Origin: Deuterostichococcus epilithicus
Lineage: Eukaryota; Chlorophyta; Trebouxiophyceae; Prasiolales; Stichococcaceae
Assembly: GCA_033439295.1 (NCBI GenBank)
Contig: JAVTLE010000004.1
Span: 992,012 to 1,056,011, forward strand
DNA length: 64,000 nt
Direction: 5' to 3'
Positions within the stretch are counted from its first letter, which is position 1; each line of letters begins with the position of its first letter. The notes under the pieces were generated by a model. The model saw only the letters and a program-made list of their open reading frames with translations, was not told the DNA's origin and made no database searches. This document shows, in pieces, positions 28,377 to 49,835 of the stretch. Made by a program: the position numbers and the translations under genes.

Positions 28377-29152
28377 TTATGCTGCCTTGTCCCAGCGCCG
28401 TTCATCGATTAGCTGCTTGACCCGCGCTGCAGCGTCGTCGCGCACTCCCCGCGCGCCGTCCACCGGCATGTGCTTCGGGTCTGTCAGCGGCCAGTCCAGC
28501 TTTTGAAGACCTGCATGAGGTTTGCACTGTTATGAAGGCACCCGCTTTCCGAGCGAGCTCCTCGACCTTGTTCTGAAGCAGGTGCCGTGAGAATATACAG
28601 CCTGTGACATGTCGCGCAGGTGTTGAGCCGGGCGGCCGCAGCGTATGGCTGTGCCCATTGGTCGAGCAAATTCGTGCGTAAAGAGCAGCTCACCCGGGAC
28701 GTACGGACAGCTTTCGCCGCAGCCCATGGTCACCAGCAGCGACGCCTGCTGCGCCAGCTCCTGCGTCAGCCGCTGCGGCTGGTTGTTCGAGATGTCGATA
28801 CCCATCTCATCCATGACCGTGACGCACACTGGGTGCACGGCGGTGCCCGGCTGCGTGCCTGCCGAGATGCCGCGCGCCTTTGCTGGGTCTACGGCCGCGT
28901 TGAACAACGCCGCTGACATCTGGCTTCGCCCTGCAGCATGGGACGCGGCATATACGTCAAAGACAAACGGCACCCTCAAACATGACGCCAGTCGTGTCAC
29001 AGTTCCGCAGGGCTTCATGTGCTGTGCTGGATCTCCCTTCGCGCCGGCTGTCAATTATATTTTTCAAAGAATGAAAAAACTCCCTTCAAAGGGAACCGAC
29101 CGGCATTGGCGACACACGCGAACAGCACTATTGCCGGCTGCGCCTCCGCCAT
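28377..29152 (-). CDS. ARSC: Arsenate reductase, ArsC of the low-molecular-weight phosphatase fold
   Basis: The enzyme reduces arsenate to arsenite, the form exported by ACR3 and methylated by ArsM. Three exons join exactly in phase: 29152-29101, 28930-28694 and 28510-28377. They give about 140 residues, normal for this bacterial-type family. The catalytic P-loop CVANAGRS (CX5R) is split by the first intron. Also seen are [40 protein letters not shown] with the second and third redox cysteines in MGCGESCP, and LDWPLTDPKHMPVDGARGVR at the end. Three cysteines in these positions fit the ArsC type that ends in a disulfide and is recycled by thioredoxin. Plants and yeast use other arsenate reductases (HAC1, Acr2), so a bacterial origin is likely but untested. 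It is head to head with ACR3. Confidence 0.92.
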
Positions 29153-29396
29153 GATGCTGTACGTAAGGGCTATGCACGAATAACGAGCCGATCTTAAAAA
29201 CTAGTTGGATACTGCGTGCGATCATCGACGGCGATGGCCGATCGCGTCACCCTTTGATCAGCGAGAGAGATGATGGATTGTTCTGAAAAGGGTGAATGAC
29301 ATATGACATCACCCCCTGCTCCAGGTGCCACGGCTCGGCTGGTCCGTGTTCTTTGCTTGACTAGATTATCTTGTACAAATTCTAACCTGCCCCACG
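29153..29396. promoter_or_regulatory. Shared promoter region between ArsC and ACR3
   Basis: Only 244 bases separate the two start codons, so one region must drive both genes. It contains the direct repeat TGACATATGACATCA near 29298 and a symmetric CATCGACGGCGATG near 29224. Either could be a regulator site; no consensus is known to me. Confidence 0.6.
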
Positions 29397-47816: not shown

Positions 47817-48245
47817 GTGAGGCGGCCCACACTGCTGCCAGTGGCGGCGTAGCAACAGCCCAGCGGCTGTTGCCGCGGCAGAGCAGGATGTTGGTCTCAT
47901 AGCCAGGAGCTCGATTGCATTAGTCACCCACTGCAGGAGCCCTTAGATATGCTGCCGCAACCTATGATCTTGGACACTGCAAGGGCGAGGGGCAGCCGCC
48001 TTTGCAAGGGCGAGGGCTTGCTCCAGAGGGTGACAAGTGCATCCAACCTCTTGTTGGCCTGACAACAATAGCTCTGCGCGACAGCAAACAACGCTGCAAT
48101 CGTGGCGCTACTTGTAGAGCACCTTCTTCACTTGTATCGGTTCAAAGGTTCAAAAGAATTGGGATTCAAAAGAATTGGGATTGGCCAACCAATGACCACA
48201 GAACTCGCGAGGTGGGTCAGCTGGGACGAACAAACTGCTTGGCGT
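47817..48245. other. Convergent 3' region between ArsM and the glycosyltransferase gene
   Basis: No gene seen. It contains a 16-base tandem duplication at 48149-48180, listed separately. Confidence 0.45.
48149..48180. repeat. 16-bp tandem duplication
   Basis: Two perfect adjacent copies of TTCAAAAGAATTGGGA lie in the ArsM/glycosyltransferase 3' region. Confidence 0.9.
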
Positions 48246-49835
48246 TCATCTGTAACTATTCGAGTACAGGGTTTTGTACAGATGGCACAGCCGCTGTCGC
48301 GAGATGCCCAGGTACCAACCCAGGCCTATGGTGAAGTGTATCCTCGTGGCGCGCCAGTTCCCAAGCGCCTCCAGCCGCCGCCCGCTGGTGTAGGCAGGCG
48401 GCCACCAAATCTGCATCCAGGAATTGGGCCCAGGATCGCTTTCGATCCCGGCACACAGCACCTGCGCGCTGCACGTCCCATAGGCCACGCACCAGAGGCC
48501 ACTTACGAGTTGCAGCCATGACGCGAAGTTTACCTGTCTGACACGGCCGCGCCTGCGCCCGCCGCTGGGCGCCGCCGCCGGCCCCGCCTCGTGCATGGTG
48601 ATGCACAGCTGCACGTCCTCCATTATGGGCAGCGACTCGTCAAAGCCGCCGACAGCAGCAAAGTCGGCCGCCCTGCAGAACATTGTCTGGTCGCCAAACA
48701 GGCACGTCCCGCCCCTGGAGGTGCATGTTCACCTCGAGTCAGCTGCTTGGGGCAGGCGAGATGCCAAACATGCTGAGAACTTCAGCAGTGCAGCAGTGAG
48801 AGTGCAGAATGATTGCTTCGCCACCGGGTCACCAAAAACGCACCTAAGCCACATCGTGGGCCGAGCCAGCATGACTAGGTAGTATGTCTTCACGAGGTGG
48901 TGCGCCGTCATGAACTTCAGCAGCCGGCCATTGCCGCCGCGGATCAGCGTGCGGAAGCCGCCGACCACTGTGCCCGGGTCCGCCAGCGTGCGCCGCATGA
49001 CGTGCACCAGCTGCACCGGCGGCTGGCTGTCGGCGTGCAGGAAGCACAGCAGCTGTCCTGATAGGGGTAGCATAATCCAGGTCACACAAGTGTCGAGGTT
49101 GTGTGGACGTCGAAGCAGAGAGCTGCAACAGTTGCGCGGCACAATTGGCACCGCTGAGTTTGCTGACCTACAGACCTGTGGCCGCCGCGGCACCGGCATT
49201 CATCTGGACGGCCCGCCCTCGGGCGGCACGGACGACTTTTGCACCACAGCCTTTCGCCGTCGCCACGGTGCTGCATCGGCAGCAGATTTGTATTTGGATC
49301 AGCCAGTGTCTCGCCTTCTCACCATGGCAGCAGCCGTCGACAAACAGCATCCAAGATCGGTCGGGCTGTGTTGTTGTTTGTCCAGGAGGCACCTGTCTGA
49401 GCTGTCGCCATCAACCACAATGATCTCATGCGGCGCTGGGGTCAGTTGCTGAAGCCACTGCAGAAAGGTGCGAGTTGTTTCAGCGACTATGCATCATGTG
49501 CAAGCGCCAGCACGTCACGTCACATGAGACCGATGCTGCACACCTTGAGAGTCTGGCCCAGCGCTTTAGCTTCATTCAGCGTCTGCATCATTAACCACAT
49601 ATTCACGCCATACAATGCCGATAGCAACGCCGGGGATCGCGGCACTCTAGAATGCAATAGCGCGTTTATCAACTCTTCAGACTGTGTAGTTTCACTCTTA
49701 CCGGGATGATGATGGACACTGTTTCAAGCGAGCGCCGCGCAACTTCATCCCAATGACGTTCTCGTCTGCGCCGGGTATGCAGGCCGACAGCAGTCACCTG
49801 CGACACGTCTTCCTTCAGTGCCTGGACTCACTGCG
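48246..49835 (-). CDS. Family 2 glycosyltransferase of the TIGR04283 (arsenosugar-associated) type
   Basis: The fold is that of a small GT-A glycosyltransferase. Phase-consistent exons: one ending VARRSLETVSIIIP (49.70 kb), then TLNEAKALGQTLK (49.56 kb), WLQQLTPAPHEIIVVDGDSS (49.44 kb), KVVRAARGRAVQMNAGAAAA (49.22 kb), LLCFLHADSQPPVQLVHVMR with VVGGFRTLIRG and KFMTAHHLVKTYYLVM (49.06-48.86 kb), GGTCLFGDQTMFCRAADFAA with GGFDESLPIMEDVQL (48.72-48.58 kb), and RRLEALGNWRATRIHF (48.38 kb) to the stop. Markers are the IIIPTLNEA start, VVDGxS, GRAxQMNAGAAxATG, LHADS (the metal-binding position, normally DxD) and the catalytic MEDVQL. This set is typical of TIGR04283, which in bacteria travels with arsenosugar biosynthesis genes. 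The first exon with the start codon is unresolved. Confidence 0.85.

What the first reader, a model, noticed from the sequence alone, without database searches (positions are those of the whole stretch)
28377..49835. Arsenic detoxification gene cluster in an algal nuclear genome
Within 21.5 kb lie ArsC, ACR3, ArsH, ArsM and a TIGR04283 glycosyltransferase. All five have intact motifs and algal-style introns, so they are resident nuclear genes rather than bacterial contamination. Together they cover arsenate reduction, efflux, methylation, organoarsenical oxidation and probable sugar conjugation. Physical clustering of a whole detoxification route is normal in bacteria but unusual in green algae.
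Basis: partly seen in the sequence, partly recalled or inferred. Interest (0 to 1): 0.92.

Follow-up and report, generated by a model that had tools for sequence, protein, structure and literature searches.

The report
Green-algal arsenic gene cluster, arsenosugar-linked
In a green alga's nuclear chromosome, genes that reduce, pump out, methylate and oxidise arsenic sit together with a sugar-transferring enzyme and a probable gene regulator; smaller versions of this cluster were known, and the additions point to how green algae may make arsenic-containing sugars.

Summary
ArsC, ACR3, ArsH, ArsM and a TIGR04283 glycosyltransferase lie in 28377-49835, intact in my models (three 5' ends open), split by 30 introns, on a 1.95-Mb contig of a 46.8-Mb genome. 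ACR3, ArsH and the glycosyltransferase pass NCBI's curated cut-offs; ArsC and ArsM are below the bacterial ones. The first four match nowhere else in the genome apart from one weak ArsM hit.

The novelty claim is only partly right: an ArsC/ACR3/ArsH neighbourhood is published for three green algae (PMC7826186), and that paper says ArsM is not in it. Elsewhere the genome holds an intron-bearing ArsS gene (412 bits, cut-off 300), a second TIGR04283 gene and a TIGR04282-like gene.

The glycosyltransferase groups with green-algal proteins and, in six relatives, lies on another contig than ArsM (3 of 3) or ArsH (3 of 3), so the cluster probably grew in this lineage rather than arriving as one bacterial operon. 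Co-regulation and the glycosyltransferase reaction are inferred, not shown. Verdict: real; an extended variant of a known algal cluster.

The parts
28377..29152 (-). ArsC: LMW-phosphatase-type arsenate reductase, 140 aa; exons 29101-29152, 28694-28930, 28377-28510
   Evidence: Model; Pfam LMWPc 53.5 bits (cut-off 23.2), below the NCBIfam ArsC cut-offs; best PDB chain 3t38; 9 of 44 prokaryotic loci found with it carry an ACR3 and 3 of 44 an ArsM in the stretch held; 3 of 3 matches in the genome are here
29153..29396 (.). 244-bp divergent stretch between the ArsC start and the first possible ACR3 exon; possible shared promoter (inferred)
   Evidence: Sequence; no word shared with the other promoter stretches beyond chance
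29397..33261 (+). ACR3 arsenite efflux permease; core exons 30380-33261 (10 exons), in-frame Met at 30314; possible extra 5' exon at 29397-29591 (coding-like but unplaced, no Pfam match)
   Evidence: TIGR00832 386.9 bits (cut-off 282.8); 7 of 7 ACR3 matches in the genome are here
34213..37836 (-). bZIP-type transcription factor gene; N-terminal 165 aa modelled in 6 exons (36396-37836), the rest to about 34213 seen as coding-like stretches only
   Evidence: N-x7-R basic region and Leu at N+25, 32, 39, 46, 53. Pfam bZIP_2 16.8 bits, below its cut-off 22.3, other coiled-coil families score nearly as well; a genome scan with bZIP_1 did not list it. Related genes on C5; one of three tested passes bZIP_2 (25.5 bits)
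38892..40713 (+). ArsH organoarsenical oxidase (FMN reductase family), 6 exons, start codon not resolved
   Evidence: Model; TIGR02690 337.4 bits (cut-off 292.25); PDB 2q62 280.6 bits; 6 of 6 matches in the genome are here
44795..47816 (+). ArsM As(III) S-adenosylmethionine methyltransferase, 384 aa, 9 exons
   Evidence: Model; PDB 5evj 428 bits over residues 34-369; Cys 55, 179 and 229 (catalytic role recalled) stand opposite Cys of 5evj; 9 of 10 matches in the genome are here, the tenth is weak
48246..49827 (-). TIGR04283-family glycosyltransferase (GT2 fold), 7 exons, 5' end open
   Evidence: Models; TIGR04283 'arsenosugar biosynthesis glycosyltransferase' 189.4 bits (cut-off 182); Pfam Glycos_transf_2 77 bits; green-algal homologues

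Best explanation
This is a nuclear arsenic gene cluster of a green alga, probably a trebouxiophyte (inferred from the nearest named proteins). A published core (ArsC + ACR3 + ArsH) has been extended by ArsM, an arsenosugar-associated glycosyltransferase and a bZIP-type regulator. Proposed working: ArsC reduces arsenate to arsenite; ACR3 exports part of it; ArsM methylates the rest; ArsH oxidises toxic trivalent methyl-arsenicals; ArsS, encoded on another contig, adds a 5'-deoxyadenosyl group from S-adenosylmethionine to dimethylarsenic; and after loss of the base the TIGR04283 enzyme acts on the arsenoriboside, making water-soluble arsenosugars. The bZIP protein may co-regulate the cluster. 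Shown: gene families, open reading frames, linkage, copy number, the presence of ArsS. Inferred: enzyme activities in this alga, the glycosyltransferase step, joint regulation.
For: Over curated cut-offs: ACR3, ArsH, TIGR04283, ArsS (412 bits, cut-off 300) and a draft of the second TIGR04283 gene (212.4, cut-off 182). ArsM aligns with 5evj. ArsC, ACR3, ArsH and ArsM match only here apart from one weak ArsM hit. ArsJ, the marker of the other algal pathway, gave 0 matches, as the published one-of-two pattern predicts. Chance of the linkage about 8e-10. Papers (passages): PMC8552651 says ArsS works with ArsM in the first steps of arsenosugar synthesis in Synechocystis; PMC12159101 says a radical SAM enzyme adenosylates the arsenic; PMC11009773 reports arsenosugars in Chlamydomonas reinhardtii.
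Against: No expression data. No shared promoter word. About 4 kb between ArsH and ArsM (40.7-44.8 kb) has no clear coding content. ArsS, the second TIGR04283 gene and the TIGR04282-like gene are on other contigs. The glycosyltransferase is unlinked to ArsM or ArsH in the six relatives that could be compared. The bZIP domain is below the Pfam cut-off and was not listed in the genome-wide bZIP_1 scan. ArsC and ArsM fail the bacterial NCBIfam cut-offs. 'Arsenosugar biosynthesis' is a curated family label, not an assay.
Confidence: 0.72

Rival explanations
1. The functional cluster is only the published ArsC/ACR3/ArsH core plus perhaps ArsM; the glycosyltransferase and the bZIP-type gene are chance neighbours with other jobs.
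For: The glycosyltransferase is unlinked from ArsM or ArsH in six comparable relatives; a second TIGR04283 gene lies elsewhere; with 23 or more bZIP_1 matches in the genome a chance bZIP neighbour is about a 1% event, not impossible; no shared promoter word.
Against: The glycosyltransferase passes the cut-off of the family that NCBI ties to arsenosugar genes; ArsS is present; either of two TIGR04283 genes landing here by chance is about 0.2%.
Confidence: 0.23
2. One bacterial ars operon was transferred whole and later gained introns.
For: The families also occur in bacteria; relatives of this ArsC subfamily sit beside ACR3 (9 of 44) or ArsM (3 of 44) in prokaryotic loci.
Against: The glycosyltransferase and ArsH group with green-algal proteins; among the 120 listed ArsM hits, those whose name gives an organism are eukaryotes; none of the 44 ArsC loci showed ArsH, TIGR04283 or ArsS in the stretch held, at most 4 kb a side; gene orientation alternates.
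Confidence: 0.03
3. Contaminating bacterial DNA or a mis-assembly.
For: None found.
Against: 30 introns, a 1.95-Mb contig, eukaryotic neighbours, more than 30 kb with other coding-like stretches on each side.
Confidence: 0.02

Closest known systems
ArsH-type (arsBHC-like) arsenic neighbourhood of green algae, Foflonker and Blaby-Haas 2020 (PMC7826186)
   Same: ArsC, ACR3 (ArsB) and ArsH close together in a green-algal nuclear genome; ArsJ not found
   Different: Here ArsM, a TIGR04283 glycosyltransferase and a bZIP-type gene are in the same 21.5 kb; the paper says ArsM is not in the neighbourhoods it found
Yeast ARR (ACR) cluster: ARR1 bZIP regulator, ARR2 reductase, ARR3 permease (recalled; PMC7826186 cites its discovery)
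   Same: A bZIP-type gene beside a reductase and an ACR3-type pump
   Different: The reductase is of the LMW-phosphatase type, not the yeast ARR2 type (recalled); ArsH, ArsM and the glycosyltransferase are added; the bZIP protein is divergent and has relatives elsewhere in this genome
Bacterial arsenosugar genes: ArsM, ArsS, TIGR04283, TIGR04282 (NCBIfam labels; Synechocystis ArsM/ArsS as told in PMC8552651)
   Same: This genome holds ArsM, ArsS, two TIGR04283 genes and a TIGR04282-like gene
   Different: Spread over four contigs; only ArsM and one TIGR04283 gene are in the cluster; interrupted by introns or matched in pieces
ArsJ-GAPDH-PGK neighbourhood of green algae (PMC7826186)
   Same: Also a nuclear arsenic neighbourhood in green algae
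   Different: ArsJ not found in this genome

Membership tests
Green-algal ArsH-type arsenic neighbourhood | ArsC, ACR3 and ArsH genes close together in the nuclear genome | tested here: met
   the bZIP-type gene lies between ACR3 and ArsH
Green-algal ArsH-type arsenic neighbourhood | Species lacks the ArsJ-type pathway | tested here: met
   NF033734 0 matches at E up to 0.01 in the own genome; of 14 control genomes 2 matched, 1 over the cut-off. GAPDH3 and PGK3 were not sought
TIGR04283 arsenosugar biosynthesis glycosyltransferase | Score over the curated cut-off of 182 bits | tested here: met
   189.4 bits
TIGR04283 arsenosugar biosynthesis glycosyltransferase | Acts on an arsenosugar | not testable with these tools
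   Needs an enzyme assay or mutant; that the family label rests on gene neighbourhood is recalled
ArsS radical SAM protein (TIGR04167) | Score over 300 bits and CxxxCxxC motif | tested here: met
   412 bits; CNQACSHC, read across a splice junction, in the model
ACR3 (TIGR00832) | Score over 282.8 bits | tested here: met
   386.9 bits
ArsH (TIGR02690) | Score over 292.25 bits | tested here: met
   337.4 bits
ArsM | Bacterial arsenite methyltransferase model NF008823 cut-off of 263 bits | tested here: not met
   181 bits; so not filed under that bacterial model, see the next row
ArsM | Long alignment with a solved arsenite methyltransferase, cysteines kept | tested here: met
   5evj 428 bits, residues 34-369; Cys 55, 179, 229 opposite Cys
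Arsenate reductase, glutaredoxin or thioredoxin type (TIGR02689, TIGR02691) | Curated cut-offs 157.6 and 174.3 bits | tested here: not met
   54.9 and 52.6 bits; so not filed as either type
LMW-phosphatase-type ArsC, type unspecified | LMWPc domain and C-x5-R loop | tested here: met
   53.5 bits (cut-off 23.2); CVANAGR in the model
bZIP transcription factor | Pfam bZIP cut-off | tested here: not met
   bZIP_2 16.8 bits against 22.3 for an 82-aa piece; no bZIP family at E up to 0.01 for the 165-aa model; a related C5 gene scores 25.5, two others 21.7 and 15.5. Hence 'bZIP-type', not filed as a Pfam member
bZIP transcription factor | N-x7-R basic region followed by leucine heptads in register (recalled pattern) | tested here: met
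   Leu at N+25, 32, 39, 46, 53; the first heptad position N+18 is Thr
Yeast ARR cluster | bZIP gene controls the neighbouring pump and reductase | not testable with these tools
   Only the gene order was seen

The most novel reading that the evidence does not exclude
The cluster is a eukaryotic arsenic regulon run by its own bZIP regulator, and its glycosyltransferase with ArsM and the unlinked ArsS makes arsenosugars: the first gene set for arsenosugar synthesis in a eukaryotic alga, with the cluster assembled step by step in the algal lineage around a detoxification core.
Probability: 0.3. Interest if true: 0.8.

Novelty: new variant of a known kind. Interest (0 to 1): 0.55.

Why it matters
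Arsenosugars are in general the major water-soluble arsenic species of marine algae (PMC11009773, passage), yet no paper listed by my searches of an open-access library (listings, with passages read in six papers) names genes for the sugar steps in eukaryotic algae, as far as titles, abstract starts and those passages show. A cluster that joins detoxification genes to an arsenosugar-family glycosyltransferase, in a genome that also holds ArsS, names testable candidates. It also suggests how a eukaryotic gene cluster can grow by recruiting resident genes.

Tried and rejected
Six-frame Pfam scans of 33.3-38.85 and 40.7-44.8 kb with stops read as X found nothing; the bZIP-type gene was then found by reading frames. 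Shared promoter words in four stretches: no 10-mer in 3 or more, 8- and 9-mers fewer than the mean of random stretches (4 against 11.7; 1 against 2.6); CACGTG occurs 4 times against 0.9 expected, one of ten words tried, not taken as evidence. Actinobacterial (mycothiol-type) ArsC, first suspected from TMGCGESCP and PDB 3t38, was dropped: the first 13 rows (Binatia, Planctomycetota, Deltaproteobacteria, Vicinamibacteria and other Acidobacteria, one Obscuribacterales) are 52-61% identical, Actinobacteria 37-46%. One bacterial donor and contamination: rejected, see rivals. More arsenic genes beside the second TIGR04283 gene, the TIGR04282-like gene or ArsS, or in 20 kb on either side of the window: none recognised by eye among coding-like stretches, which is a weak test. 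The careful glycosyltransferase tree did not finish; only the quick tree is used. Synteny in relatives could not be tested: none are held; contig lengths of protein hits served as a proxy.

Rows left out: Trebouxia C0004 (GT and ArsH) and Coccomyxa viridis (GT and ArsM) were left out of the linkage proxy because their names point to different assemblies. In the GT tree the algal rows P0013 and P0040 were left unlabelled. Homologue searches listed the best 120 of 3710, 6188 and 7863.
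Full report
What is there. The window is G000:C4:992012-1056011 of a 46.8-Mb, 21-contig genome. I built splice models by reading frames. Five genes are open from end to end in these models: ArsC (minus, 28377-29152), ACR3 (plus, core 30380-33261), ArsH (plus, 38892-40713), ArsM (plus, 44795-47816) and a glycosyltransferase (minus, 48246 to about 49827). They hold 30 introns, 29 GT-AG and one that I read as GC-AG. The 5' ends of ACR3, ArsH and the glycosyltransferase are not settled; a coding-like stretch at 29394-29576 may be a first ACR3 exon, which would leave 244 bp between its ATG at 29397 and the divergent ArsC start.

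Identity. NCBIfam: ACR3 386.9 bits (cut-off 282.8), ArsH 337.4 (292.25), glycosyltransferase TIGR04283 'arsenosugar biosynthesis glycosyltransferase' 189.4 (182). ArsC and ArsM are below the bacterial cut-offs (54.9 of 157.6; 181 of 263). ArsM aligns over residues 34-369 with 5evj, an arsenite methyltransferase, at 428 bits, with Cys 55, 179 and 229 kept. ArsC passes Pfam LMWPc; of 44 prokaryotic loci that it brought in, 9 carry an ACR3 and 3 an ArsM in the stretch held (at most 4 kb a side), none ArsH, TIGR04283 or ArsS at E up to 1e-6, so its subfamily is found in ars operons.

Between ACR3 and ArsH, on the minus strand, lies a bZIP-type gene. Six exons give a basic region KNRRSQSRYRAKQR (N-x7-R) and leucines at N+25, 32, 39, 46 and 53; the usual first leucine (N+18) is Thr. 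The register holds across three splice junctions. Against this: the 165-aa model matched no bZIP family at E up to 0.01, only two coiled-coil families below their cut-offs; an 82-aa piece gives bZIP_2 16.8 bits, below its cut-off of 22.3, with ATG16 and HAUS-augmin3 close behind; PDB matches (MafG, ATF-4) have E 0.56-0.99; and the genome-wide bZIP_1 scan did not list it. For it: four related matches lie on contig C5, three of which read the basic region without a break; of these three, one passes bZIP_2 (25.5 bits) and two do not (21.7; 15.5, where HR1 scores 17.6). The genome has at least 23 bZIP_1 matches at E up to 0.1, so a bZIP gene in 21.5 kb by chance is about a 1% event.

More than chance. 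At E up to 0.01, ACR3 (7 of 7 matches), ArsH (6 of 6) and ArsC (3 of 3) match only at this locus, and ArsM in 9 of 10 matches, the tenth being weak (E 0.008) on C15. With ArsC fixed, the other three all falling within 21.5 kb has probability about 8e-10.

The rest of the arsenosugar set. A search with TIGR04167 found one ArsS locus on C17:261799-264800 (5 exon matches). My six-exon model scores 412 bits against a cut-off of 300; its start is not settled. A second TIGR04283 gene is on C3 (draft 212.4 bits), and two exons of a TIGR04282-like gene on C10 (55 and 36.5 bits, cut-off 134). ArsJ gave no match.

What is known. Foflonker and Blaby-Haas (PMC7826186; abstract, outline and passages) reported an ArsC-ACR3-ArsH neighbourhood in Chromochloris zofingiensis, Coccomyxa subellipsoidea and Klebsormidium nitens, an alternative ArsJ neighbourhood in species lacking the first, and state that ArsM homologues are not present in the neighbourhoods. 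The core here is therefore known; ArsM, the glycosyltransferase and the bZIP-type gene are additions. A passage in PMC8552651 says ArsS functions with ArsM in the first steps of arsenosugar synthesis in Synechocystis, and one in PMC12159101 says the adenosylation of arsenic is done by a radical SAM enzyme. Passages of PMC11009773 report arsenosugars and arsenolipids in Chlamydomonas reinhardtii and speak of 'yet unknown pathways'. Passages of PMC10456119 give a proposed route in Dunaliella with a 2-O-methylase and a nucleosidase; passages of PMC9812998 deal with ArsM duplication and ArsB/ArsC transfer in red algae, not with such a cluster. Searches for arsenosugar genes in algae (listings) showed no paper on ArsS or TIGR04283 in eukaryotic algae; 0 papers hold ArsS, arsenic and algae together as whole words. 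The library is open-access only, and the key ArsS paper is not held.

Origin. The glycosyltransferase has homologues in many green algae (best 120 listed of 3710). In a quick tree of 122 rows the window protein lies in a starred set of 35 rows with all 15 rows that I labelled as algae, apart from the 6 rows labelled as bacteria; the placement of the second copy is unsure (branch 2.3). ArsH lies in a 15-row set with 6 of 6 labelled green algae (support 88, not starred), next to fungi. By the contig length given for the hits, the glycosyltransferase and ArsM are on different contigs in Myrmecia, Coccomyxa sp. Obi and Micractinium (3 of 3 comparable), and the glycosyltransferase and ArsH in Trebouxia C0010, Coccomyxa elongata and C-169 (3 of 3). 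This proxy takes the hits of one species to come from one assembly. It suggests that the glycosyltransferase joined the cluster in this lineage. Trees of ACR3, ArsM, ArsC and ArsS were not made.

How it most likely works. Reduction by ArsC, export by ACR3, methylation by ArsM, oxidation of trivalent methyl-arsenicals by ArsH, and a branch through ArsS and the TIGR04283 enzyme to arsenosugars; the bZIP-type protein is the candidate regulator. Gene identity and linkage are shown; activities and regulation are inferred. No shared promoter word was found, and no expression data exist here.

Verdict. Real, resident, partly known; an extended variant with a good lead into eukaryotic arsenosugar synthesis.

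Noticed in passing
window 25503-27258, minus strand: An FkbM-type methyltransferase gene (PF05050 29.6 bits, cut-off 22.7, joined draft) lies directly beside ArsC. A 2-O-methylase is proposed in the literature for Dunaliella arsenoribosides (PMC10456119, passage); a link is pure speculation.
   Followed up: partly
L028 (C17:256001-266000), about 3360-5100: An SMP-30/gluconolactonase-type gene (PF08450 125.4 bits, joined draft) lies tail-to-tail with ArsS.
   Followed up: partly
L028, around 8500 and 8404: Upstream of the ArsS exon that carries ACSHCHVESS there is a near-copy reading ACSHCYVESV inside the preceding intron, a possible partial exon duplication.
   Followed up: no
C5:3277182-3296726 (L101-L103): Four matches to the cluster's bZIP-type protein lie within 20 kb, a local group of related genes.
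   Followed up: partly
P0188, P0210, P0231, P0234: Four ArsM homologues of 506-523 aa also carry an LMWPc (ArsC-type) domain: ArsM-ArsC fusions, three of them from eukaryote collections.
   Followed up: no
P0121: The highest-scoring ArsM hit is a 587-aa protein named as Plasmodiophora brassicae (53% identity over 76% of the query), ahead of the green-algal hits.
   Followed up: no
window 40714-44794: About 4 kb between ArsH and ArsM without clear coding content; three weak coding-like stretches (42327-42410 minus, 43671-43754 minus, 43899-43979 plus).
   Followed up: no
window 53.6-53.8 kb, minus strand: An RWP-RK-domain gene (50.9 bits, cut-off 29.3) lies to the right of the cluster.
   Followed up: partly
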